This document shows, piece after piece, positions 2,979 to 16,241 of a DNA stretch of 59,402 nt. The first letter of the stretch is position 1. Each line of letters opens with the position of its first letter. The notes beneath the pieces are model-generated. The model saw only the letters and a list, made by a program, of their open reading frames with translations. It did no database searches and was not told where the DNA came from. The stretch lies in assembly GCA_903906365.1 (NCBI GenBank), contig CAIVKC010000006.1, positions 1 to 59,402 of the forward strand. Reading direction: 5' to 3'. The stretch comes from an uncultured Bacteroidota bacterium (lineage in GTDB: Bacteria; Bacteroidota; Bacteroidia; Chitinophagales; Chitinophagaceae). A program made the translations under genes and the position numbers.

Positions 2979-3076
2979 TCCTTTTTTAACCCTTAGAGAA
3001 TGATAATTGACCAAAACAGGTTAATTTTTGTTTAGTATAGATTAATTGACGCATCCGGGGCTGTTGGTTATTGCCT

Positions 3077-3100: not shown

Positions 3101-4021
3101 ATGAGCATTAACTGGAATGGCGTCATCCCCGCACTGACTACCAAATTTACACCCGACGATCAGCTGGATCTGGCAGCATTTGAAACCAATCTGGAAGCCC
3201 AGATCGCAGCAGGCGTGCAGGGCGTCATCATCGGCGGCTCACTGGGAGAGGCGAGCACCCTGGAACCTGCGGAAAAGGAGACCCTGGTCCGATTTGCAGT
3301 GGAGAAGGCAGCCGGCCGCATTCCGGTGCTGATGAATATCGCCGAAGGATCCACCCGCCAGGCGGTAGGGCAGGCCTCCATGGCGGAACAATGCGGTGCA
3401 GAGGGCCTTATGCTGTTACCACCCATGCGCTATAAAGCCGACCACCGGGAGACCGTGACTTTCTTTAAAACGGTGGCCGCTTCAACTGGTTTACCTATAA
3501 TGATTTATAATAATCCATATGATTATAAAATCGAGGTCACCCTGGATATGTTTGAAGAATTGCTGGTGCTTCCCAATATCCAGGCTGTGAAGGAATCCAC
3601 CCGGGATGTGAGTAATGTCACCCGGCTGATCAACCGTTTTGGCAGCCGGCTGAAGATCCTTTGCGGCGTGGACACCATTGCCCTGGAAGAACTCCAGATG
3701 GGAGCCAATGGCTGGATAGCCGGATTGGTCTGTGCCTTTCCGTGTGAAACGGTGGCTATTTTCAGGCTGGCTAAAGCCGGCAGGTTGGAGGAAGCCCTTC
3801 AGATTTACCGCTGGTTTTTGCCCCTGCTGGAATTGGATATACATCCCAAACTGGTTCAATACATCAAACTGGCAGAAACCCAGGCTGGTATTGGAACCGA
3901 ATATGTCAGGGCACCGAGGCTGATGCTGGCAGGCAGGGAAAGAGAAGATATTTTGCAGATTATTAATAAAGGAATAGCAAACAGGCCGCTGCTGCCTGAT
4001 TATCTTTCCATAAAACTATAA
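3101..4021 (+). CDS. DapA-family lyase, probable 1-pyrroline-4-hydroxy-2-carboxylate deaminase
   Basis: 306 residues, a full-length DapA/NAL-type TIM barrel. Visible signatures are GGSLGEAST near residues 46-54, the YNNP motif with Tyr136, and the Schiff-base lysine Lys164 in AVKEST. In hydroxyproline clusters this family deaminates and dehydrates 1-pyrroline-4-hydroxy-2-carboxylate to 2-oxoglutarate semialdehyde. That role is inferred from the neighbours: the semialdehyde dehydrogenase starts 3 nt downstream, and the epimerase and FAD oxidase are in the same operon. A true DapA (lysine pathway) is less likely in this setting. No signal peptide, so cytoplasmic. It is the first gene of the run and has a -7 element just upstream. 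Confidence 0.8.
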   Translation: MSINWNGVIPALTTKFTPDDQLDLAAFETNLEAQIAAGVQGVIIGGSLGEASTLEPAEKETLVRFAVEKAAGRIPVLMNIAEGSTRQAVGQASMAEQCGAEGLMLLPPMRYKADHRETVTFFKTVAASTGLPIMIYNNPYDYKIEVTLDMFEELLVLPNIQAVKESTRDVSNVTRLINRFGSRLKILCGVDTIALEELQMGANGWIAGLVCAFPCETVAIFRLAKAGRLEEALQIYRWFLPLLELDIHPKLVQYIKLAETQAGIGTEYVRAPRLMLAGREREDILQIINKGIANRPLLPDYLSIKL

Positions 4022-4024
4022 ATC

Positions 4025-5515
4025 ATGGGTTTTCAGGATGCCAGCCTTTCAGAAATTAATCAGATCATGGAGCAGGCCGCCCTCGCTTCCCAGGTATATG
4101 GTAAAATGTCCCTGATCAGCAGGGCCGGGTTCATGCGGGCCATTGCCGGTGAATTGGATGCCATCCGGGAAACGCTCCTGATCACCGCGATGGAGGAAAC
4201 CCATCTTCCTCAGCCCAGGCTCAACGGGGAATTAAACAGGACGATTTATCAGCTGAACAGTTATGCCGATGCCTGCGTGGCGGGAAACTGGCTGGAGGCC
4301 CGTATAGACACAGCCATCCCTGAAAAAATGCCCCCCAAACCGGATATAAGAAAAATGCTGGTCCCCCTGGGACCCGTTGTGGTTTTCGGGGCCAGTAATT
4401 TCCCCTTTGCCTATTCCACGGCGGGAGGGGACACGGCCTGCGCCTTGGCGGCCGGTTGCCCGGTGATTGTAAAGGCGCATCCGGCCCATGCCCGAACTTC
4501 GGAACTGGCGGCCGGAGCCATTATGGCTGCGGCCGGAAAATGCGGGCTTCCAAAGGGCGTATTTGCCCATATTCATTCTTCGGGTTTTGAGGGTGGCCGC
4601 GCACTCGTGTCCCACCCGGCCGCCCGTGCGGTAGGTTTTACCGGCTCTTTTAGTGGAGGTAAAGCCTTGTTTGATATTGCCAGTCAGCGTAAAGAGCCTA
4701 TAACGGTGTTTTCTGAAATGGGCAGCATCAATCCGGTATTCCTGCTTTCGGAAAAAATCCGCCAGGAGGCGGAAGTCGTGGCTAAAATGTATGCCGCATC
4801 CATTACCCTGAGTGCCGGCCAGTTTTGCACCAACCCGGGGCTGCTTGTCGGAATAGATGGACCGGATCTGGAACATTTTCTGGACATACTGGGATCGGAA
4901 ATCCAGCATATAAAGCCTTCCTCCATGCTCCATCCCGGCATTGCGGCCGCCTACAGGGAAAAAAAGGCGCTGGCCCTTTCCCAACAGGAGGTGCGCCTGG
5001 TAGCTCAGTCCGATACCCAGGCCGAAGCCTTGGAAGGGATACCCACCATTGCCAGTGTTCACGGGGATGCTTTTTTATCCAACCCGCTTTTGCACCAGGA
5101 GGTATTCGGACCTTATTCGCTGGTGATTCGCTGCCGCAACCAGGAACAGATGCTGGCTGTTGCCAGGCACCTGGAAGGGCAACTGACCTGCACGGCCATG
5201 GCGACCCCCCAGGATATCCGGGATAACCCCCAGTTGATGGATGCCATCGGTCAGCTCTGCGGACGTTTTATCCTCAACGGGGTACCCACCGGCGTGGAAG
5301 TCTGCCTGTCCATGCATCATGGAGGTCCCTATCCGGCAACTACGGACAGCCGCTATACTTCCGTAGGGGCAGACGGTATCAAACGATTCGCCAGACCCCT
5401 TTGTTTTCAGAACTGGGATGACCAATTTCTCCCGGATGAACTGAAAAATGCCAACCCGCTTGGTATATGGCGTACCGTGAACGATCAATTGACCAAGGAA
5501 CCCATCACATCATGA
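4025..5515 (+). CDS. Aldehyde dehydrogenase, probable 2-oxoglutarate semialdehyde dehydrogenase
   Basis: 496 residues, a complete aldehyde dehydrogenase. The general base is Glu231 in FSEMGSINP and the nucleophile is Cys268 in SAGQFCTNPG. The FGASNFPFAYS segment and the sequence style match the NADP-type 2,5-dioxopentanoate dehydrogenases that finish hydroxyproline or pentose catabolism by making 2-oxoglutarate. It begins 3 nt after the DapA-family gene and its stop overlaps the start of the galactosidase-like gene in an ATGA, so translation is probably coupled in both directions. Cytoplasmic. The same enzyme type also serves L-arabinose oxidation, which could let one enzyme handle both parts of the inferred substrate; that is speculation. 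Confidence 0.85.
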   Translation: MGFQDASLSEINQIMEQAALASQVYGKMSLISRAGFMRAIAGELDAIRETLLITAMEETHLPQPRLNGELNRTIYQLNSYADACVAGNWLEARIDTAIPEKMPPKPDIRKMLVPLGPVVVFGASNFPFAYSTAGGDTACALAAGCPVIVKAHPAHARTSELAAGAIMAAAGKCGLPKGVFAHIHSSGFEGGRALVSHPAARAVGFTGSFSGGKALFDIASQRKEPITVFSEMGSINPVFLLSEKIRQEAEVVAKMYAASITLSAGQFCTNPGLLVGIDGPDLEHFLDILGSEIQHIKPSSMLHPGIAAAYREKKALALSQQEVRLVAQSDTQAEALEGIPTIASVHGDAFLSNPLLHQEVFGPYSLVIRCRNQEQMLAVARHLEGQLTCTAMATPQDIRDNPQLMDAIGQLCGRFILNGVPTGVEVCLSMHHGGPYPATTDSRYTSVGADGIKRFARPLCFQNWDDQFLPDELKNANPLGIWRTVNDQLTKEPITS

Positions 5516-7623
5516 TATTGCTTAAGAAGTCTTGCCTGCTGAACTGCCGCTGCCTGCTGCTGCTCCTTTTTTCCCTATGGCGGCCAGCCCGGTCACAGGG
5601 GCCCCAGCCGCCCCTTAACGGACCATGTGCCGTCAGCATGCGAAACGGGCAACTGCTTATCTCCTATGACAACCGAAGATTGCTGGAGGCCGCTGTCGAC
5701 CCCAAGCAGGTTTCATTCCTTCATATAGAGAACAGGACAGCCAACCGGGTGGAGCAGGTCTTTGTCCTGGAATCCGGCAATGGTGCAGAATTTGAACTCG
5801 ACGGCCAGATCCAGGGGTCTGAGGAGTCTTTTGCCTGTGAAGCTGACAATCCCCCCAAGGCCGTCGCCCTGGTACGCCACAGCTCCGGGGAGAGCAAGAG
5901 CCTGCTGAACCGGGCGGTTTATGACCGCAGCAGGGATTGGGTGCTGTCTTTTGATCTCCCCGCACCGGTCTCCCTGGAACCGGCCGGAACCTCCGAGGGG
6001 CGCCATATCTATCACTTCCATGTTAAGACTTCCAAATTATCCATACGCTTTCGTCCCCGCTTTTACCAATACCACAAGGGGTTGACCTATTTTGAACCAT
6101 GGACCTACCGGATATGGGACAAACCGGTGGTCGGATGGTGTTCCTGGTTTGCCTACCTCAATAAGGTCACCGAGCAGAATATCCGGACGGTGGCAGATTC
6201 TCTGTCCAGCGTCTTACTGCCCTACGGGTATCAATACCTCCAGATTGATGATGGTTATCAGCAGGAACCAATTGGCAAGCCGGAACACTGGCTCCAGCCC
6301 AATAATAAGTTTCCCTCCGGGATGGCCGCCTTGAGCCGCTACATCAGTGACCGGGGTCTGAAACCCGGGATATGGACCAATGTATCCTTCGCCGACAGTG
6401 CCTTTGCCAACGCCCATCCTGACTGGTTTGTCAGAAATGACCGTCAAAAACCTGTTTCCGGGGAGTGGGTGGGCTATGTTATGGACGGCTCCAATCCCGC
6501 TACCATTGATCACCTGATCCGCCCTGTTTATGACAGCCTGAAGAAGGAAGGGTGGAATTATTTCAAGGTGGATGCCCTGCGACATTTAAGATATGAAGGA
6601 TATAATTCCTATCCATCCTATTTTAAGGCCCGCGGCATCAGCCGGGAGGATGCCTTTCGCTCGGTGGTTACATCCATCCGCAAATCGGTGGGTAAGGACA
6701 ATTACCTGCTGGCCTGCTGGGGCATCCGTCCGGAACTCATCGGGCTGGTGGACGGTTGCCGGATCGGCAATGACGGATTCAGTTATGCAGGGTTGGCTCA
6801 GTTCAACTCTTTCAATAATGTCGTATGGAGGAATGATCCCGACCATGTGGAACTTACTGATGCGGAAGCTTTCCGTTCCTGCAGCGTGACCTCACTGACC
6901 GGATCGGTTTTGCTTCTCACCGACAAACCCGAACGCTATAAGGGGCCGATCCTGGAGGCTGCACGCAGAACCTCGCCCGTCCTTTTTACCCGGCCTGCCC
7001 AGGTCTATGAGGTCGATCCCTCCCGCATACAGTCCCTGGGCAGATATCCCATGGAGGTTAGCGGCGATGGTCCCAGGGTCTTTGATGCCAGTTATACCCC
7101 TTTTACAGAATTATATTCCCTGGAACTGACCCGTCCTTTTGGAAACTGGCTCGTTTTGGGAAGGATGAATGACCGTCATGCCAGGCTCCCTCTTTCCGAG
7201 CTGGGACTTCAGGCTGACTCAACCTACGAAGTATTTGAATTCTGGACCAGGACCTACCTGGGCAGGGTAAAAAAGGAGCTGGTTTTCCCCGCCATCGATG
7301 CCGCCTACAATTGCCAGGTCTTCTGCCTGCGCAAAGCGGTTTCACATCCGCAGCTGCTGGCCACCAACCGGCACATTTCATGCGGGGGTGTAGAGCTGAT
7401 ATCCTGTGACTGGAAAGGCGGCCTCCTCAGCGGGCAAAGCGAACTGGTGGCTGGTGATGAATATGACATCTATATACAGGTTCCTTCCGGCTACCGGCCC
7501 GGTAAGATCAGCACAGAGGCGGATCTGCTGGGCAGCAAACTGGAAAACAGCCTGCTTACCGTGCGCATGAAATCAAAACAGGCCCGGACCATATCCTGGG
7601 AAATTGAATTTTTACAACCATGA
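5512..7623 (+). CDS. Secreted alpha-galactosidase-like glycoside hydrolase (clan GH-D, GH36/GH27 type)
   Basis: 703 residues from the ATG at 5512; upstream in-frame codons would only extend into the dehydrogenase gene and spoil the signal peptide. A hydrophobic leader (residues about 8-25, ending ARSQG) indicates export. The barrel shows YLQIDDGYQ, the putative nucleophile Asp354 in YFKVDAL, and the putative acid/base Asp421 in CRIGND, all clan GH-D features. A beta-sandwich N-terminal region precedes the barrel, as in GH36, and a beta-rich tail follows. Expected activity is release of alpha-galactose, with beta-L-arabinopyranosidase or raffinose-synthase-like activity as alternatives. It overlaps the dehydrogenase before it and the epimerase after it by ATGA each, so it is embedded in the hydroxyproline operon. 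Confidence 0.8.
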   Translation: MILLKKSCLLNCRCLLLLLFSLWRPARSQGPQPPLNGPCAVSMRNGQLLISYDNRRLLEAAVDPKQVSFLHIENRTANRVEQVFVLESGNGAEFELDGQIQGSEESFACEADNPPKAVALVRHSSGESKSLLNRAVYDRSRDWVLSFDLPAPVSLEPAGTSEGRHIYHFHVKTSKLSIRFRPRFYQYHKGLTYFEPWTYRIWDKPVVGWCSWFAYLNKVTEQNIRTVADSLSSVLLPYGYQYLQIDDGYQQEPIGKPEHWLQPNNKFPSGMAALSRYISDRGLKPGIWTNVSFADSAFANAHPDWFVRNDRQKPVSGEWVGYVMDGSNPATIDHLIRPVYDSLKKEGWNYFKVDALRHLRYEGYNSYPSYFKARGISREDAFRSVVTSIRKSVGKDNYLLACWGIRPELIGLVDGCRIGNDGFSYAGLAQFNSFNNVVWRNDPDHVELTDAEAFRSCSVTSLTGSVLLLTDKPERYKGPILEAARRTSPVLFTRPAQVYEVDPSRIQSLGRYPMEVSGDGPRVFDASYTPFTELYSLELTRPFGNWLVLGRMNDRHARLPLSELGLQADSTYEVFEFWTRTYLGRVKKELVFPAIDAAYNCQVFCLRKAVSHPQLLATNRHISCGGVELISCDWKGGLLSGQSELVAGDEYDIYIQVPSGYRPGKISTEADLLGSKLENSLLTVRMKSKQARTISWEIEFLQP

Positions 7624-8621
7624 AAAAGACATTTTTTTGTATTGATGCACATACCTGTGGCAACCCGGTCCGGCTGGTGGCCGGCGGAGGGCCTGTACTG
7701 CAGGGAAAGGACATGAGTGAAAAGCGGCAGCATTTTCTGCGGGAATTCGACTGGATCAGAAAGGGGCTGATGTTTGAACCAAGGGGTCATGACATGATGA
7801 GCGGGAGCATACTCTATCCTGCCCATGACCCGGAAAATGACGTGGCCGTTCTCTTTATTGAAACCAGCGGCTGCCTTCCCATGTGCGGACACGGTACCAT
7901 CGGAACAATCACCATAGGTATTGAAGAGGGCCTCATCATTCCCCGTATTCCCGGTCAGGTAAGGATGGAAACCCCTGCCGGACTTGTATTGATCAGCTAC
8001 CGACAGGAGGGCCGCAAGGTAAAATCTGTCCGGCTGACCAATGTGCCTTCCTTTCTGGCCGCTGAACATATTTCGGTGGAATGCCCGGACCTGGGTACCC
8101 TTCAGGTGGACGTATCCTATGGGGGAAACTTCTATGCCATCGTGGACGTACAGCCAAATTTCCCCGGGCTGGAAAACTATACGGCCGGACAGCTCATCGC
8201 CTGGAGCCGGGTTTTACGGCAGCGCATCAACGCCAGCCATCAGTTTCAACATCCTGAAAATCCAACCATTTCAGGTTGCTCCCATATTTTGTGGACCGGC
8301 GCCGTGCTGGACAAGACATCCACCGCGCGTAATGCGGTTTTTTACGGAGATAAGGCCATTGACCGTTCCCCCTGCGGAACAGGGACTTCCGCCAGGATGG
8401 CGCAGTGGCATGCAAGGGGTAAACTCAAGATGGGGGACGATTTTATCCACGAAAGTATTATCGGCTCCCAATTCACCGGGCGTATTGAGGAGGAAACCTG
8501 GGTGGGTTCCAGCAGGGCCATTCGCCCCAGCATTGAAGGCTGGGCCAGGATCTACGGATACAATACGATTTCCATCGACCCCGAGGATGACCCCTATGCC
8601 CTGGGGTTTCAGGTCATCTGA
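7620..8621 (+). CDS. 4-hydroxyproline 2-epimerase (proline racemase family)
   Basis: 333 residues. This family interconverts trans-4-hydroxy-L-proline and cis-4-hydroxy-D-proline with two catalytic cysteines. Both are present: Cys89 in MCGHGTIG and Cys252 in SPCGTGTSARMA. Presence of the first cysteine argues against trans-3-hydroxy-L-proline dehydratase, where it is Thr or Ser. The pattern is closer to hydroxyproline epimerase than to proline racemase, but substrate preference cannot be proved by eye. No signal peptide, so cytoplasmic. Its ATG overlaps the stop of the upstream galactosidase-like gene (ATGA). It performs the first step of the inferred hydroxyproline pathway; the D-amino acid dehydrogenase at 12392 would act next. 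Confidence 0.9.
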   Translation: MKKTFFCIDAHTCGNPVRLVAGGGPVLQGKDMSEKRQHFLREFDWIRKGLMFEPRGHDMMSGSILYPAHDPENDVAVLFIETSGCLPMCGHGTIGTITIGIEEGLIIPRIPGQVRMETPAGLVLISYRQEGRKVKSVRLTNVPSFLAAEHISVECPDLGTLQVDVSYGGNFYAIVDVQPNFPGLENYTAGQLIAWSRVLRQRINASHQFQHPENPTISGCSHILWTGAVLDKTSTARNAVFYGDKAIDRSPCGTGTSARMAQWHARGKLKMGDDFIHESIIGSQFTGRIEEETWVGSSRAIRPSIEGWARIYGYNTISIDPEDDPYALGFQVI

Positions 8622-8637
8622 GCAGGTCTGAAGACCC

Positions 8638-8645
8638 TAATTTTG
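8638..8645 (+). promoter_or_regulatory. Putative internal -7 promoter element before the GH51 gene
   Basis: TAATTTTG matches TAnnTTTG and lies 19 nt before the GH51 start, in a 43-nt gap. It may give the glycosidase genes a second promoter within the operon. Confidence 0.4.
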
Positions 8646-8664
8646 AATGTAAAAACGGATCGAC

Positions 8665-10188
8665 ATGAAAAAATACCTGGTATCCTGCCTATTGTTTTTA
8701 ATCCTCACGTCCTGGCTGCAGGGGCAATCACTAAAGGCCAGAATCAAGATCGACCTGGAAAGGCAAGTGGGAGATATCGACCCGCTTATCTATGGAAATT
8801 TCACCGAACACCTCGGGCGTTGTATCTATGGGGGGATATATGATCCCAATTCCCCGGTTGCCAACCAGGACGGGTTTCGCAAGGATGTAGTGGAAGCCAC
8901 CAGGAACCTGGGGGTAACGCAGGTCCGCTGGCCAGGCGGCAATTTTGCCTCCGGCTACCACTGGACAGATGGCATTGGACCCCGCGAAGGCCGCCCGAAA
9001 AGAAAAGACCTGGCCTGGGGTGATACGGAGTCCAATTTGGTCGGAACCGATGAATTCATGCAATTTGCCCGTCAGGCACATGTGGAGCCCTATGTTTGTG
9101 TTAACCTGGGAACCGGGAGTTGGGATGAGGCAAGAAACTGGGTGGAATATTGTAATGCCAAAACAGGCCTTTATTATTCTGACCTGCGGGCCAAAAACGG
9201 GCATCCCGAGCCCTACCATGTTAAATACTGGGGGCTGGGCAATGAAATGGACGGCCCCTGGCAGATGGGACACCGTTCGGCTGAGGATTATAGCAAATTC
9301 GCACTGGAAGCGGCCAAACTGATGAAGTGGTCTGATGATTCCATTAAACTCGTTGCCTCTGGATCGAGTTTCTACAATGCCGGATGGATGGACTGGAATA
9401 AAACTGTACTCACCACCCTGCATGACCATATAGACTATCTTTCCCTGCATCATTATTCGGGGAATTATGATAAGGATCACTATAAATTCATGGCCATTAC
9501 CATCAGGGTCGAAGATATTATCCGGCTCACCGAAGGACTCATCAACGAGGTCAGGGACCTCTATAAGATGGAGAAGCCCATTTACATAGCATTTGATGAA
9601 TACAACGTATGGTACCGGGCCGAAAATGCCCAAAAGCTCGAAGAACACTATAATATGCAGGATGTGCTGGTCGTAGCCATGTACCTCAATACCTTCCTAC
9701 GCCATGCCAATGTGGTTAAAATGGCCAATATGGCGCAGTTGGTCAATGTAATTGCACCCATGATGGTTACCAATGGTAAACTTTGGCTGCAGACCATTTA
9801 TTATCCTCTGCAGCTTTTTGCCCTGCATTGCAAGGGTCATTCCCTGGAAACCTTTCTGGAATGCGACAAGTACGATGCCGGAGACTTTAAGCAGGTTCCT
9901 TACCTGGATGTATCTTCGGTATATAATGAACAAACTAAGGAGGTCTTCATCAATGTCGTTAACAGACACCTGGATAAATCCATCGAGACTTCCATTGCCA
10001 GCCAGTTTGGCAAATGGGCATCCCAGGCGACGGTTTATGAAGTCAATTCCCAAAACCTGACCGATGAAAATACAGCGGAAATGCAAAAGGTAAAGACAAA
10101 AGAAACGACCATTAACACCGGCAGCGAAGGGTTCACTTATAGTTTCCCGGCCCATTCTTTTACCATGATCAAGGTTAAACTCAAATAA
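8665..10188 (+). CDS. Secreted alpha-L-arabinofuranosidase, GH51
   Basis: 507 residues with a signal peptide (residues 1-21, ending LQGQ). The N-terminal part has the GH51 opening GNFTEHLGRCIYGGIYD and the RWPGGNFASGYHW motif. The acid/base is Glu194 in LGNEMDG and the nucleophile is Glu312 in AFDEYNVWYR, giving the standard retaining GH51 pair. A C-terminal beta-sandwich follows. The family releases terminal alpha-L-arabinofuranose from arabinan, arabinoxylan or glycoproteins. Here it sits between the hydroxyproline epimerase and a GH127 enzyme, which suggests it removes the alpha-linked arabinose that caps hydroxyproline arabinosides. That substrate is inferred; arabinan remains possible. 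Confidence 0.92.
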   Translation: MKKYLVSCLLFLILTSWLQGQSLKARIKIDLERQVGDIDPLIYGNFTEHLGRCIYGGIYDPNSPVANQDGFRKDVVEATRNLGVTQVRWPGGNFASGYHWTDGIGPREGRPKRKDLAWGDTESNLVGTDEFMQFARQAHVEPYVCVNLGTGSWDEARNWVEYCNAKTGLYYSDLRAKNGHPEPYHVKYWGLGNEMDGPWQMGHRSAEDYSKFALEAAKLMKWSDDSIKLVASGSSFYNAGWMDWNKTVLTTLHDHIDYLSLHHYSGNYDKDHYKFMAITIRVEDIIRLTEGLINEVRDLYKMEKPIYIAFDEYNVWYRAENAQKLEEHYNMQDVLVVAMYLNTFLRHANVVKMANMAQLVNVIAPMMVTNGKLWLQTIYYPLQLFALHCKGHSLETFLECDKYDAGDFKQVPYLDVSSVYNEQTKEVFINVVNRHLDKSIETSIASQFGKWASQATVYEVNSQNLTDENTAEMQKVKTKETTINTGSEGFTYSFPAHSFTMIKVKLK

Positions 10189-10353
10189 TTACTGGTTTGC
10201 TGCTGTCTCCCGGTCCCGGTAGGCCAGGGGCTTGCCAACAAATGCCGGGCGGGCATTGTGGTAAATGCTTACATTTAGAAACGAATTTCACCTGAGGCCC
10301 TATCCGGTACTCTAAACCCGGGTTTTCAAGGCCTTCAAAAAAAAAAGAGCAAT

Positions 10354-12315
10354 ATGAAAAAATGCGCGGGTGTTCTGATTTTATTTGCGCTCTGGGGCAG
10401 TGCCCGGGGACAGTCCTCCATGCTGAAACTGGAACCGGTAAGTTTTGCCCAGGTTAATATAACCGATGGTTTCTGGAAGCCCAAAATTGACAAGGTAGCC
10501 ACCAGGACACTGGCAGCCTGCATTTACCAGACCGAAACGGCCACCCCGCGCATACGCAATTTCGAAAAAGTGGCCCGCCACAAAGGCGAACAGCATGAAG
10601 GAATATTCTACGATGATTCTGACGTTTTCAAAGCGCTGGAGGCCATGTCCTATTCGTTGAAAACCCATCCCAACGCCGAGATGGAAAAAAAATGTGATGA
10701 ATGGATTGAAAAAATCCAGGCAGCCCAGTTACCCGACGGGTACTTAAATACGTATTTCACGCTTCGGGGACTTGACCAGCGCTGGACGGATATGAGCATG
10801 CATGAGGACTACAACGCCGGACATATGATCGAGGCTGCCGTGGCCTATTATGAGGCCATCGGCAAAAGAAAATTTCTGGATGTGGTGATCAGGTGGGCGG
10901 ATTATTTTGATTCCCTGTTCGGGCCGGGTAAAAGGGATTGGGTAACCGGTCACCAGGAACTGGAACTGGCACTCGTAAAACTTTTTAAAGTCACCCGAAA
11001 TGACAAATACCTTAAACTGGCCCACTGGTTGCTGGAGGAGCGCGGCCATAAACTGGCCAAAGGATATACCTGGACCGATTGGAAGGATACGGCCTATGCG
11101 CAGGACCTGGTACCTGTCAGGGATCAAAAAAAGATTACCGGACATGCCGTGCGGGCCATGTACATGTATACAGGGGCTGCCGACGTCGCTGCCCTTACCG
11201 GTGACATGGGCTATCTCAATGCCATGCGAACCGTGTGGGAAGATGTCGTTTACCGTAACATGTATATAACTGGCGGGATTGGATCGGCAGGCAGTAATGA
11301 GGGATTTTCCACCGATTATGATTTACCCAACGAGCAGGCCTATTGCGAAACCTGCGCTTCGGTGGGCATGGTATTCTGGAACCAGCGCATGAACGCCCTC
11401 ACGGGTAAGGCTGAATATATTGATGTGCTGGAAAGGAGCCTCTATAACGGGGCCCTGGACGGATTGTCACTGAGCGGGGACCACTTCTTTTACGGGAACC
11501 CGCTGGCTTCAACGGGTAAAAATGCCAGGAGGGAATGGTTTGGAACTGCCTGCTGCCCGGCAAACATTGCCCGGCTGGTGGCCTCTCTGGGAAATTATGT
11601 ATATGCAAAATCACCCAATGGAATCTGGATCAATTTATTTGTGGGCAGTAATACCACCCTTGTCCTGGACAAGACAACGGTGGCTGTGAATATGGAAACC
11701 AATTATCCCTGGGAGGGCAGGGTAGTGCTGCACCTGGACCCCTCTCAAAAAGCAGCTTTTGCTTTGCATATCAGGATACCGGGCTGGGCAGACGGGGTAG
11801 CCGTCCCGGGCAACCTCTACCAATTTGCCGATACGGTAAACAGCCTGCCGGTTTTGATGATCAACAATAAGGCGGTGAATTTTTCCCGTGAAAACGGCTA
11901 TGCTGTCGTACAAAGAACCTGGAAAAAAGGGGATAAAGTGGAATGGTTGCTTCCCATGGAAATAAGAAAGGTTGTGTCCAGGCAGGATGTCAAAGCCGAT
12001 AAAAACCGGATAGCCCTTCAGCGGGGACCGCTGGTATATTGTGTGGAAGGGGCTGATAACAGCGGAAAGGCCTGGAATATCCTGCTGCCGGATAACACCC
12101 TGCTTTCCACCATTCATGAAAACATATTGACCGAACCCGTTGTAAATATTACGGGGGAGGTACCCGTCACCGAAGTGAGTGAGGATGGGTTGTCGGTCAG
12201 GACTTCCAGGAAAAAAATCATCGCCATACCCTATTATACCTGGTGTAACCGGGGCAGTAACCAAATGCAGGTGTGGCTTCCCACCCGGATCGGGGATATA
12301 AAATTAAATTACTAA
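10354..12315 (+). CDS. Secreted beta-L-arabinofuranosidase, GH127 (DUF1680)
   Basis: 653 residues, typical for GH127, with a signal peptide (residues 1-20, ending ARGQ). The family uses a cysteine nucleophile in a zinc site. The full site is visible: Glu332 and Cys334 in YCETCAS, and Cys400 and Cys401 in GTACCPANI, equivalent to Glu338, Cys340, Cys417 and Cys418 of Bifidobacterium HypBA1. An (alpha/alpha)6 barrel followed by beta domains fits the sequence. HypBA1 removes beta-L-arabinofuranose from hydroxyproline, so its place in a hydroxyproline-catabolic cluster is highly suggestive. The upstream gap of 165 nt has no gene; it holds a 6-bp stem (AATGCC/GGCATT) and an A-rich run just before the start. 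Confidence 0.93.
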   Translation: MKKCAGVLILFALWGSARGQSSMLKLEPVSFAQVNITDGFWKPKIDKVATRTLAACIYQTETATPRIRNFEKVARHKGEQHEGIFYDDSDVFKALEAMSYSLKTHPNAEMEKKCDEWIEKIQAAQLPDGYLNTYFTLRGLDQRWTDMSMHEDYNAGHMIEAAVAYYEAIGKRKFLDVVIRWADYFDSLFGPGKRDWVTGHQELELALVKLFKVTRNDKYLKLAHWLLEERGHKLAKGYTWTDWKDTAYAQDLVPVRDQKKITGHAVRAMYMYTGAADVAALTGDMGYLNAMRTVWEDVVYRNMYITGGIGSAGSNEGFSTDYDLPNEQAYCETCASVGMVFWNQRMNALTGKAEYIDVLERSLYNGALDGLSLSGDHFFYGNPLASTGKNARREWFGTACCPANIARLVASLGNYVYAKSPNGIWINLFVGSNTTLVLDKTTVAVNMETNYPWEGRVVLHLDPSQKAAFALHIRIPGWADGVAVPGNLYQFADTVNSLPVLMINNKAVNFSRENGYAVVQRTWKKGDKVEWLLPMEIRKVVSRQDVKADKNRIALQRGPLVYCVEGADNSGKAWNILLPDNTLLSTIHENILTEPVVNITGEVPVTEVSEDGLSVRTSRKKIIAIPYYTWCNRGSNQMQVWLPTRIGDIKLNY

Positions 12316-12391
12316 TAAAATAAGGCTGCCCTGGCCCGGCATTAGACATTATTCCAACAGGGCAGGCAGCCGGACAAAAAATGGAATCAAC

Positions 12392-13642
12392 ATGGGAAAA
12401 CAGGTCACTATTGTAGGAGGCGGGGTCATAGGCCTCTGCTGTGCATATTACTTGAACAAAGGGGGCCACGAGGTCACCGTAATAGAAAAGGGCGATATCA
12501 CAAACGGTACTTCTTTCGGGAATGCCGGGTATGTTTCACCGAGCCATTTTATTCCCCTGGCCTCACCGGGCATCGTGGCAAAAGGCCTTCGCTGGATGCT
12601 CAGTTCCTCCAGCCCTTTTTACATCAAACCCAGGATGAATATTGATTTAATCAGGTGGGGGATGGCTTTTTACCGGAGCGCCAATGAAAAAACGATGGAA
12701 AAACACATCCCGCCCCTGAATGATATACTTCATCTCAGCCGATCCCTGATGACGGATATGAAATCGGAACTGGGAAATCAGTTCCGAATGGCAGAAGTGG
12801 GTTGTTTCATGCTATATAAGAGTACAGCCACCGAAAAGCATGAACTGGAACTGGCCGCCCAGGCCGCCAGGCTGGGCATTGAAACAAAAGTCCTTACCGG
12901 GGCGCAGGTGCAGGATATGGAACCGGAAGTGGAAGTGACCGTACGGGGTGGTGTTTTGTACCCGATAGACTGTCACTTACATCCCGGGGATTTCATGAAG
13001 ACCCTGAAATCCCACCTGCAGGCCGGTGGCGTCAAACTCATGCTTCAAACCACGGTTACCGGTTTTGAAAAAAACGGGAACAGGGTCCAGGGGGTTATTA
13101 CAGACCAGGGAAAAGTTGCCTGTGATGAACTGGTCATTGCCTCCGGTTCCTGGATTCCCCAGGTGGCTGACCAGTTGGGAATTCACCTGCTGCTGCAGGC
13201 GGGCAAAGGATACAGTATCACCTATACCGATGTGGAAAAAAATCTCCATCATCCAGCCATTTTGGTGGATGACCGGACCGCGATGACCCCGATGGGTAAG
13301 GATCTGCGGATGGGAGGAACCATGGAAATCAGCGGGATTAATGATCATATCCTGATAAAGCGGGTACAGTCCATATTCCGGGCAGCCAAAAATTATTACC
13401 CCAATTTGCCAGTCAGCTTTCCGGAGACGGACAGGATATGGAGCGGCCTTCGACCTTTGAGTCCGGACGGACTGCCCTATATAGGCAGGCACAGTAAATA
13501 TACCAACGTAACCATTTCCGGCGGACATGCCATGCTGGGAATTTCCCTGGCTGCCGGGTCCGGCAAACTGGTGGAAGAAATCCTATCCGGCAAAAAAACC
13601 AGTATGGATATGGAGGCTTTTGGAGTAGAGCGGTTTGGTTAA
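12392..13642 (+). CDS. FAD-dependent D-amino acid dehydrogenase, probable cis-4-hydroxy-D-proline dehydrogenase
   Basis: 416 residues of the DAO superfamily. The N-terminus has the FAD-binding beta-alpha-beta motif VGGGVIGLCCAYYL with a following acidic VIEKGD, and the C-terminus has a second FAD segment (WSGLRPLSPDGLPYIG and SGGHAMLGISLA). The family resembles DadA-type D-amino acid dehydrogenases. In this cluster the expected reaction is oxidation of cis-4-hydroxy-D-proline to 1-pyrroline-4-hydroxy-2-carboxylate, feeding the deaminase at 3101. It lies 76 nt after the GH127 gene and is the last gene of the run. No signal peptide is evident; association with the inner face of the membrane is usual. 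A glycine or D-alanine substrate cannot be excluded by sequence alone. Confidence 0.85.
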   Translation: MGKQVTIVGGGVIGLCCAYYLNKGGHEVTVIEKGDITNGTSFGNAGYVSPSHFIPLASPGIVAKGLRWMLSSSSPFYIKPRMNIDLIRWGMAFYRSANEKTMEKHIPPLNDILHLSRSLMTDMKSELGNQFRMAEVGCFMLYKSTATEKHELELAAQAARLGIETKVLTGAQVQDMEPEVEVTVRGGVLYPIDCHLHPGDFMKTLKSHLQAGGVKLMLQTTVTGFEKNGNRVQGVITDQGKVACDELVIASGSWIPQVADQLGIHLLLQAGKGYSITYTDVEKNLHHPAILVDDRTAMTPMGKDLRMGGTMEISGINDHILIKRVQSIFRAAKNYYPNLPVSFPETDRIWSGLRPLSPDGLPYIGRHSKYTNVTISGGHAMLGISLAAGSGKLVEEILSGKKTSMDMEAFGVERFG

Positions 13643-15350: not shown

Positions 15351-16241
15351 CTACTGGTGAAAACTTTCCCCTATAAAACGCAGGGCGTCGGTGATACCGC
15401 TCCGCCAGTAAGTCCAGGAATGAGACCCGTCCCTGACGCGGAATTCATGGGGTACTTTTTTTTCGGTCAGCAGCAGATGAAGCATGCAATTGCCCCTTGT
15501 CAGGAAATCATCATCCCCGCAGTCGATCCAGTAGCGCACTTCACTGAGTTGCTCATAAGTCTTATTTTCCACCAGTTTCAAAACAGAATTGCTGTACCAG
15601 AAGGTATTGAGCCGGTCCCTGCCCTTTAAATTATGACCGTAGAGCTGTGCGTAGGTGCCTTCCCAGTTCCCCGCAGTCTTGGCAAGCATTTCATCATCGG
15701 TATATACCGCTGCGCTCAGGGGGGCCGCTGCAGCAAATAACTGCGGGTATTTCAGGGAATATATCAGGGTGCCATAGCCTCCCATGGAAAGTCCGGCAAT
15801 ACCGCGATACCTTTTCTGGGACCGGATTCTGTATGTCTTTTCAATGGCCGGCATGAATTCCCTGATAAAGAAGTCTTCGTATTTTTCCTTGCCGTCAAAG
15901 GAGTTGATGTACCAGCTGGAATCCGCATTGGGCATTACGATGATCATGGGGGGAATGGTCCCCTCGGCAATGGCTTTGTCTGCATAGCGGTTGATCTCAC
16001 CAAACTGCAGCCAGCCCGTATGGTCATCGGTGTAACCATGTAACAGATAGACAACCGGATAATTCCTGTCGGAGCTAGCATAATCGGGAGGAAGGTAAAT
16101 GGCGTATTTCACACTCCGGCCCAGCACGAAGCTTGGTATACTCAGTTCCTCATTGACTTTTCCCGTTGGCTGGCTAAAGCTCACTGAACCCGGCAGAAGC
16201 AGGGACATTATCAAAACTATTTTCCCCCAATGGATGACCAT
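15351..16241 (-). CDS. Secreted alpha/beta-hydrolase esterase (CE1/esterase D-like)
   Basis: 296 residues with a signal peptide (about residues 1-24, ending VSFSQ). The domain is a putative esterase fold: YPVVYLLHGYTDD gives the oxyanion region, and GIAGLSMGGYG carries the nucleophile serine. The C-terminal EFRVRDGSHSWTYW places the catalytic histidine. Relatives include feruloyl and acetyl esterases of family CE1 and S-formylglutathione hydrolases; the signal peptide favours a polysaccharide or glycoconjugate substrate. It lies just beyond the arabinose/hydroxyproline cluster but is convergent to bshC, so co-regulation is not shown. About 720 nt without a clear gene lie upstream of its start. 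Confidence 0.85.
   Translation of the reverse strand: MVIHWGKIVLIMSLLLPGSVSFSQPTGKVNEELSIPSFVLGRSVKYAIYLPPDYASSDRNYPVVYLLHGYTDDHTGWLQFGEINRYADKAIAEGTIPPMIIVMPNADSSWYINSFDGKEKYEDFFIREFMPAIEKTYRIRSQKRYRGIAGLSMGGYGTLIYSLKYPQLFAAAAPLSAAVYTDDEMLAKTAGNWEGTYAQLYGHNLKGRDRLNTFWYSNSVLKLVENKTYEQLSEVRYWIDCGDDDFLTRGNCMLHLLLTEKKVPHEFRVRDGSHSWTYWRSGITDALRFIGESFHQ

What the first reader, a model, noticed from the sequence alone, without database searches (positions are those of the whole stretch)
3101..13642. A candidate extensin-degrading locus: hydroxyproline catabolism interleaved with three arabinogalacto-type glycosidases
Seven consecutive same-strand genes encode the four enzymes from trans-4-hydroxy-L-proline to 2-oxoglutarate (epimerase 7620, FAD dehydrogenase 12392, DapA-family deaminase 3101, semialdehyde dehydrogenase 4025) mixed with exported alpha-galactosidase-like, GH51 and GH127 enzymes. 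Plant extensins carry Ser-O-alpha-galactose and Hyp-O-beta-L-arabinofuranosyl chains capped by alpha-L-arabinofuranose. Each decorating linkage has a matching enzyme here, and the freed amino acid has a complete catabolic route. I infer one pathway that consumes both the glycan and the hydroxyproline of such glycoproteins. I am not aware of this full combination being described as one locus.
Basis: partly seen in the sequence, partly recalled or inferred. Interest (0 to 1): 0.9.

Follow-up and report, generated by a model that had tools for sequence, protein, structure and literature searches.

The report
Operon for eating plant extensin glycoproteins
A soil-type bacterium carries one tightly packed gene cluster that seems built to strip the sugars off plant cell-wall proteins of the extensin kind and then burn their unusual amino acid, hydroxyproline; relatives carry rearranged versions of the same set.

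Summary
Seven co-directional genes (3101-13642) encode a complete trans-4-hydroxyproline (Hyp) route interleaved with an alpha-galactosidase-like enzyme, a GH51 and a GH127; the alpha-galactosidase gene overlaps Hyp genes on both sides by 4 bp. None of the loci examined has the same seven-gene order, but the functional set recurs. Window-type GH127 lies within 5 kb of the Hyp epimerase in 18 of 33 genomes having both (0.09 expected). The 3 copies of this alpha-galactosidase found in 396 genomes (window included) all sit in Hyp loci. An unrelated GH27 alpha-galactosidase sits with Hyp genes elsewhere, including a GH127-GH27-Hyp operon outside the order. Other Hyp loci add GH146-type enzymes, peptidases, a permease or araBDA; in four loci (mostly Cytophagales) GH51-GH127-GH146 heads an L-arabinose operon. 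These contexts intersect on Hyp-arabinosides of extensin-type glycoproteins. In the window's genome a Hyp-type AraC gene, a permease and a GH146-type gene lie on another contig. Not shown: any enzyme activity. GH127 specificity is unresolved by sequence (tie with an aceric-acid hydrolase), and the locus lacks peptidase, transporter and regulator genes. I saw no earlier description in the open-licence library searched. New variant of a known kind.

The parts
3101..4021 (+). DHDPS-family gene, probable pyrroline-4-hydroxy-2-carboxylate deaminase
   Evidence: PF00701 188.8 bits; family present in 94 of the fetched loci including the window; this superfamily does this step in the Hyp route (PMC4113996 passage)
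4025..5515 (+). Aldehyde dehydrogenase, probable 2-oxoglutarate semialdehyde dehydrogenase
   Evidence: PF00171; best NCBIfam model 2,5-dioxovalerate dehydrogenase, far below its cut-off
5512..7623 (+). GH36/27-type alpha-galactosidase with a signal-peptide-like start, candidate for Ser-O-alpha-galactose
   Evidence: PF02065/PF16499 over cut-off; 1zy9 E=6.3e-25, both catalytic Asp positions kept; overlaps ALDH and epimerase genes by 4 bp each; found in 3 of 396 genomes, each time in the Hyp locus
7620..8621 (+). 4-hydroxyproline 2-epimerase
   Evidence: NF010578 equivalog 592.7 bits over cut-off 376; C89/C252 pair
8665..10188 (+). GH51 alpha-L-arabinofuranosidase with a signal-peptide-like start, candidate for the alpha-1,3-Araf cap
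   Evidence: PF06964, PF22848; 1pz3 E=1.5e-131
10354..12315 (+). GH127 with a signal-peptide-like start, candidate beta-L-arabinofuranosidase
   Evidence: PF07944, PF20736, PF20737; catalytic residues aligned with 3wkw
12392..13642 (+). DAO-family FAD enzyme, probable cis-4-hydroxy-D-proline dehydrogenase
   Evidence: PF01266 217.8 bits; family present in 93 of the fetched loci including the window
3019..3042 (+). Candidate operator for the Hyp-type AraC regulator, upstream of the first gene
   Evidence: Best match within the 122-bp upstream gap to a motif learnt from relatives' AraC-DapA intergenic regions; score 8.4, shuffle p 0.047, sixth best in the whole window; weak alone

Best explanation
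The locus is a hydroxyproline-glycoprotein utilisation operon of a Chitinophagaceae bacterium. Three exported glycosidases trim extensin-type glycopeptides: the alpha-galactosidase takes Gal off Ser, GH51 the alpha-1,3-Araf cap, GH127 the beta-linked Araf; a GH146-type enzyme from another contig probably takes the last Araf off Hyp. Peptidases and a permease encoded elsewhere deliver free trans-4-Hyp. The epimerase makes cis-4-hydroxy-D-proline, the FAD enzyme oxidises it, the DapA-like enzyme deaminates and the dehydrogenase yields 2-oxoglutarate; arabinose goes through araBDA on another contig. An AraC regulator gene next to the GH146-type gene may control both sites. Shown: gene content, packing, catalytic residues, recurrent co-location. 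Inferred: substrates, export, regulation, joint transcription.
For: Packing with 4-bp overlaps. Window-type GH127 within 5 kb of the epimerase in 18 of 33; a second GH127 group (38-48% identity) within 10 kb in 10 of 61 genes, 0.28 expected. Araf-type GHs (127/146/51) in 30 of 83 Hyp loci of the window's family, 16 genera. Alpha-galactosidase: 3 copies in 396 genomes, all in Hyp loci; a GH27 alpha-galactosidase instead in L048 and in L250/L263 outside the order, in the order GH127-GH27-DapA-ALDH-epimerase-FAD. araA within the fetched stretch in 5 of 121 Hyp loci, two families. In 4 of 80 GH127-centred loci GH51-GH127-GH146 heads araB-araD-araA. S9 and M24 peptidase genes and DUF885 genes at Hyp loci (DUF885 is of unknown function in Pfam, its peptidase likeness is recalled). 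Window genome contig C49: GH146-type gene, Hyp-type AraC, amino-acid permease. Extensin glycan structure: PMC7933510 section 9, read.
Against: No activity data. GH127 specificity is ambiguous, and the GH127 of L263 is clearly nearest 6ex6 (755 bits). The exact gene order was seen only in the window. 0 of 38 Hyp loci of the second family (f18) hold an Araf-type GH. 15 of 33 window-type GH127 genes in epimerase-bearing genomes are not within 5 kb of it (two at 24-28 kb, 11 on another contig), and 9 of 42 are in genomes without the epimerase. Among the 80 GH127-centred loci, 37 with at least 5 kb of flank on both sides show no Hyp gene. Alpha-galactosidases occur in only 5 of 121 Hyp loci of the order. 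One Hyp locus (L083) has an AbnA-like GH43, which points to arabinan. No transporter, peptidase or SusCD in the locus. The operator match in the window is weak and there is none upstream of the C49 permease. Kinship inflates the co-location statistics.
Confidence: 0.68

Rival explanations
1. Arabinogalactan-protein (AGP) utilisation: Hyp comes from AGP backbones, and the GHs trim alpha-Gal, alpha-Araf and terminal beta-Araf of AGP side chains.
For: AGPs also hold Hyp. An enzyme releases alpha-D-Galp-(1->3)-L-Ara from gum arabic AGP (PMC8939339, start of abstract seen), and GH127 BT3674 works with galactanases on larch arabinogalactan (PMC10850190 passage).
Against: The families I recall as typical of AGP breakdown (galactanases, beta-galactosidases, glucuronidases) were not among the recurrent families annotated at Hyp loci. 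Among 78 further operon ORFs no GH family shown matched two or more (only the first 25 of 118 families are shown, so single cases are not excluded).
Confidence: 0.15
2. Two adjacent functions without one substrate: a general arabinan/arabinoside GH module that settled in a Hyp operon, with shared transcription but separate substrates (for example RG-I arabinan plus free Hyp).
For: The GH51-GH127-GH146 module exists with araBDA and no Hyp genes in four loci; GH146 BT0349 was characterised on arabinan-derived oligosaccharides (PMC10850190 passage); 37 of 80 GH127-centred loci have flanks long enough and no Hyp gene; L083 has an AbnA-like GH43.
Against: Repeated association with different GH127 groups, two alpha-galactosidase families, peptidases and araBDA, in different orders and orientations.
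Confidence: 0.14
3. Chance neighbourhood in this one strain.
For: The exact seven-gene order was seen only in the window.
Against: 18 of 33 against 0.09 expected for GH127; 3 of 3 for the alpha-galactosidase, 2 of 2 without the window.
Confidence: 0.03

Closest known systems
Bacterial trans-4-hydroxyproline catabolic clusters (epimerase, D-Hyp oxidase/dehydrogenase, deaminase, 2-oxoglutarate semialdehyde dehydrogenase)
   Same: Same four superfamilies and the Cys/Cys epimerase (PMC4113996 passages)
   Different: Three glycosidase genes with signal-peptide-like starts are interleaved; the main text of that paper holds no word starting with 'glycos' or 'arabino'
HypBA1/HypBA2/HypAA systems of Bifidobacterium longum and Xanthomonas euvesicatoria for Hyp-linked arabinooligosaccharides
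   Same: Exo-arabinofuranosidases including GH127/GH146 types; in Xanthomonas a putative prolyl oligopeptidase gene is adjacent (PMC6085000 passages)
   Different: Those use GH121 and GH43; 'epimerase' does not occur in the main text of the Xanthomonas paper and its passages show no Hyp catabolism; here a GH51 stands where they have GH43, no GH121 is among the seven genes, and the Hyp route and an alpha-galactosidase are included
Bacteroidota polysaccharide utilisation loci
   Same: Co-localised exported glycosidases
   Different: No SusC/SusD among the seven genes or the three flanking genes scanned; some relatives' Hyp loci have them (L044; SusC-like ORFs in L244 and L248)

Membership tests
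trans-4-Hyp to 2-oxoglutarate pathway | 4Hyp 2-epimerase with Cys/Cys active site | tested here: met
   NF010578 over cut-off; C89, C252
trans-4-Hyp to 2-oxoglutarate pathway | DAO-type, DHDPS-type and ALDH-type partners in the cluster | tested here: met
   PF01266, PF00701, PF00171
trans-4-Hyp to 2-oxoglutarate pathway | Substrate specificity of the four enzymes | not testable with these tools
   needs enzyme assays
GH127 | Catalytic domain with acid/base Glu, Zn-binding Glu/Cys and Cys nucleophile | tested here: met
   PF07944 344 bits; five residues aligned with 3wkw
GH127 | beta-L-arabinofuranosidase rather than aceric-acid hydrolase activity | tested here: inconclusive
   519.9 bits to 4qjy and 519.2 to 6ex6; aceric-acid hydrolase model 440 bits, cut-off 950
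GH51 | Arabinofuranosidase domains and catalytic Glu motifs | tested here: met
   (residue roles recalled)
GH36/GH27 alpha-galactosidase | Melibiase domain with two catalytic Asp | tested here: met
   PF02065 45.3 bits, cut-off 27; Asp pair aligned with 1zy9 (roles recalled)
GH36/GH27 alpha-galactosidase | Fold confirmed by structure prediction | tested here: inconclusive
   AlphaFold2 with 3 sequences gave mean pLDDT 49.5; not used
HypBA1/HypBA2/HypAA-type HRGP system | GH121 beta-L-arabinobiosidase and GH43 HypAA | tested here: not met
   neither among the seven gene products; the rest of the genome was not searched for them
Polysaccharide utilisation locus | SusC/SusD pair | tested here: not met
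   none among the seven genes and three flanking genes scanned

The most novel reading that the evidence does not exclude
A dedicated extensin utilisation system: in Bacteroidota, genes for both sides of the protein-sugar bond (Hyp catabolism and L-arabinose release or catabolism) and for Ser-O-alpha-Gal have come together several times, with non-orthologous alpha-galactosidases (GH36-type and GH27) recruited in parallel. The window's alpha-galactosidase would be, as far as the review section and listings I saw tell, the first named bacterial enzyme for peptidyl-Ser alpha-galactose of extensin, and an AraC regulon would tie scattered parts together.
Probability: 0.45. Interest if true: 0.78.

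Novelty: new variant of a known kind. Interest (0 to 1): 0.66.

Why it matters
Extensins are cross-linked plant cell-wall glycoproteins, and I know of little work on how soil bacteria consume them. A locus pairing glycan removal with catabolism of the freed amino acid gives an immediate list of enzymes to test on Hyp-arabinosides and Ser-galactose peptides. The review section read (PMC7933510 section 9) names bacterial enzymes for the arabinose linkages but none for Ser-Gal. It would also explain why Hyp loci in Chitinophagaceae hold a changing set of glycosidase and peptidase genes.

Tried and rejected
Aceric-acid (RG-II) role for GH127: considered because 6ex6 scores as high as 4qjy. Not excluded, but it does not account for the Hyp or araBDA neighbours. 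Trans-3-Hyp dehydratase or proline racemase in place of 4Hyp epimerase: rejected, those models are below cut-off and the Cys/Cys pair is present.

AlphaFold2 model of the alpha-galactosidase: mean pLDDT 49.5 with three sequences, so no fold search was made.

Operator test: the motif is clear in relatives but weak in the window (p 0.047, sixth best site of the window). The shuffles kept only base composition and p values are uncorrected. The composite pattern was built from the two candidate sites themselves, so its two exact hits are not independent evidence; the one-mismatch site lies inside a SusC-like ORF and was discarded.

Serine dehydratase beside a Hyp locus (L133) is suggestive for Ser-Hyp repeats but similarity found it in 1 of the 124 order loci and in none of the 80 GH127-centred loci; not used as main evidence.

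Rows dropped: the GH127 hits were split at 58% identity, where one search shows a gap between 58 and 48%; one search scored at most 3 candidates per genome and at most 2, so copies may be missed. In one search, 22 of 81 rows had too little flank to be labelled. In one search, 2 of 30 intergenic regions were outside the length limits. In one search, 78 of 102 listed ORFs were scanned and 25 of 118 families were shown. Of 124 loci from the order (123 genomes, one split over two contigs), 4 had no called epimerase ORF; searches use the other 120 plus the window. Presence means anywhere in the fetched stretch (up to about 19 kb), not always inside the operon. One search gives no shuffle control.
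Full report
What is there. Seven + strand genes lie between rimO and bshC: DapA-type deaminase, semialdehyde dehydrogenase, alpha-galactosidase, 4-hydroxyproline epimerase, GH51, GH127 and an FAD amino-acid dehydrogenase. Gaps are 3, -4, -4, 43, 165 and 76 bp, so the alpha-galactosidase gene overlaps Hyp genes on both sides. The epimerase model is far over its curated cut-off and the Cys/Cys pair is present. The three glycosidases have signal-peptide-like N-termini (by eye) and keep their catalytic residues (most roles recalled).

Conservation. The epimerase is over cut-off in 124 of 396 genomes of the order. I fetched 124 stretches from the other 123 genomes and mapped genes by tblastn and ORF families. 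DapA-type, FAD and ALDH families are in 94, 93 and 84 loci (window included), and in a number of the window's relatives the core stands near rimO and bshC. In or near this core a restricted set recurs. Of 121 loci with a called epimerase (window included): GH127 in 23 (12 genera), GH146-type in 19 (11 genera), GH51 in 7, alpha-galactosidase in 5, DUF885 in 27, S9 (DPP IV-like) in 7, M24 (aminopeptidase P-like) in 7, amino-acid permease in 7, AraC in 39 (families identified on representatives; the GH146 label rests on the C49 copy, 55% identical to a family member, and the assignment of 5opj to GH146 is recalled). Araf-type GHs occur in 30 of 83 loci of the window's family (16 genera) and in 0 of 38 of the other family. 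In 16 of the 23 loci with GH127 it is in the same co-directional run as the epimerase. None of the loci examined has the window's exact order; nearest are L134 (epimerase-GH51-GH127-GtaA-FAD-bshC) and L109 (epimerase-alpha-galactosidase-GH127, with one small ORF between).

Is it chance? Window-type GH127 (58% identity or more) has 42 genes in 42 genomes; 33 of these genomes have the epimerase and in 18 the two lie within 5 kb, 0.09 expected; 15 do not. A second group (38-48%) gives 10 of 61 within 10 kb, 0.28 expected. The alpha-galactosidase family (E <= 1e-110) was found in 3 of 396 genomes, each time in the Hyp locus, in two genera and at different positions. These numbers ignore kinship. 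On an epimerase gene tree the label 'window-type GH127 nearby' (18 rows) changes 11 times and the GH146 label (19 rows) 14 times (quick tree, no shuffle control, possibly inflated). On a GH127 tree of 81 rows, 22 in Hyp context (21 of the 80 fetched loci plus the window), 37 not and 22 unlabelled, the label changes 5 times, at least 4 forced by starred branches, 18 in shuffles. So the association is partly inherited and partly renewed.

Both sides of the bond. In 4 of 80 GH127-centred loci from named genomes (L173 Cytophagales, L198 and L200 Cyclobacteriaceae, L174 labelled Bacteroidetes only) GH51-GH127-GH146 stands directly upstream of a NUDIX gene and araB-araD-araA. In 5 of the Hyp loci araA lies within the fetched stretch, with araD. 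In a Pontibacter genome (L224) the same GH127 lies 5-10 kb from AmpP-like, weakly DPP IV-like and DUF885 matches. An operon of the window's family (L048) reads DapA-ALDH-GH27 alpha-galactosidase-permease-GH51-epimerase-FAD-DUF885. Outside the order, 20 further loci included L250 and L263 with GH127-GH27-DapA-ALDH-epimerase-FAD in one direction; in the same genus L267 and L268 have GH127 before DapA without GH27, and L266 has neither. The GH127 of L263 is nearest 6ex6, so its activity is uncertain. Most of the other 18 loci had no GH127 or alpha-galactosidase match; L244 and L256 had GH146-type matches. What the positive contexts share is a substrate made of Hyp, L-arabinofuranose and alpha-galactose. 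Extensin fits: Ser-Hyp3-5 with Hyp-beta-Araf chains capped by alpha-Araf, and Ser-alpha-Gal (PMC7933510 section 9).

The missing parts. The window locus has no regulator, transporter or peptidase. On contig C49 the same genome has a GH146-type gene (best solved relative 5opj, 505 bits), an AraC gene 57% identical to the AraC of a relative's Hyp locus and an amino-acid permease 57% identical to a Hyp-locus permease. The araBDA genes are on C24 beside a second GH51. A motif learnt from AraC-DapA intergenic regions of relatives has a match upstream of DapA at 3019-3042 (p 0.047; sixth best in the window) and in the GH146-AraC gap of C49 (p 0.009), but none upstream of the C49 permease. In L250, L263, L267 and L268 its best match in the upstream gap lies before GH127, the first gene (p 0.046, 0.0045, 0.014, 0.029), and not between the GH genes and DapA; in L266 it is before DapA (p 0.001). 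These p values are uncorrected.

Literature. Ten full-text searches listed no paper that, from title, abstract start or the passages I opened, describes Hyp catabolism and arabinofuranosidases as one locus. The library holds open-licence papers only and several listed papers were not opened. Closest: the Xanthomonas HypBA1/BA2/AA study (PMC6085000, passages), a genome-neighbourhood study of proline racemase relatives (PMC4113996, passages), an in silico proposal of HRGP use by Latescibacteria (PMC4454575, passages) and Bll4HypBA1 as the Araf-beta-Hyp enzyme (PMC10850190, passages).

Verdict. Substrate, export, induction and regulation remain to be shown by experiment.

Noticed in passing
L096, L105, L109, L120, L134: A glutaminase-A-like six-hairpin protein (PF16335, DUF5127, DUF4964 in the L134 copy) recurs inside Hyp operons of four genera; its role is unknown and it is a candidate enzyme of the same pathway.
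   Followed up: partly
L133:14115-15692 (genome G313, same genus as the window): A gene with L-serine dehydratase domains lies with DPP IV-like, M1-like and aminopeptidase P-like genes next to AraC, epimerase and FAD genes: Ser and Hyp are the main residues of extensin repeats.
   Followed up: partly
e.g. L116:7554-8828 (-): A fatty-acid-hydroxylase-family gene (family found in 32 loci) sits on the opposite strand inside or beside the Hyp cluster; no link to Hyp is apparent.
   Followed up: no
L194 and L206: A GH127 gene directly followed by a DAO-type FAD gene and preceded by what looks by eye like a LacI-type regulator and a SusCD pair, with no epimerase in the stretch.
   Followed up: no
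window 15351-16241 (-): An esterase-family gene (PF00756) with weak similarity to a feruloyl-esterase model (87 bits, cut-off 1200) lies just beyond bshC.
   Followed up: no
L089:10051-12357 and family members: A Sortilin/BNR-repeat protein (family in 12 loci) stands between ALDH and epimerase in several relatives; function unknown.
   Followed up: no
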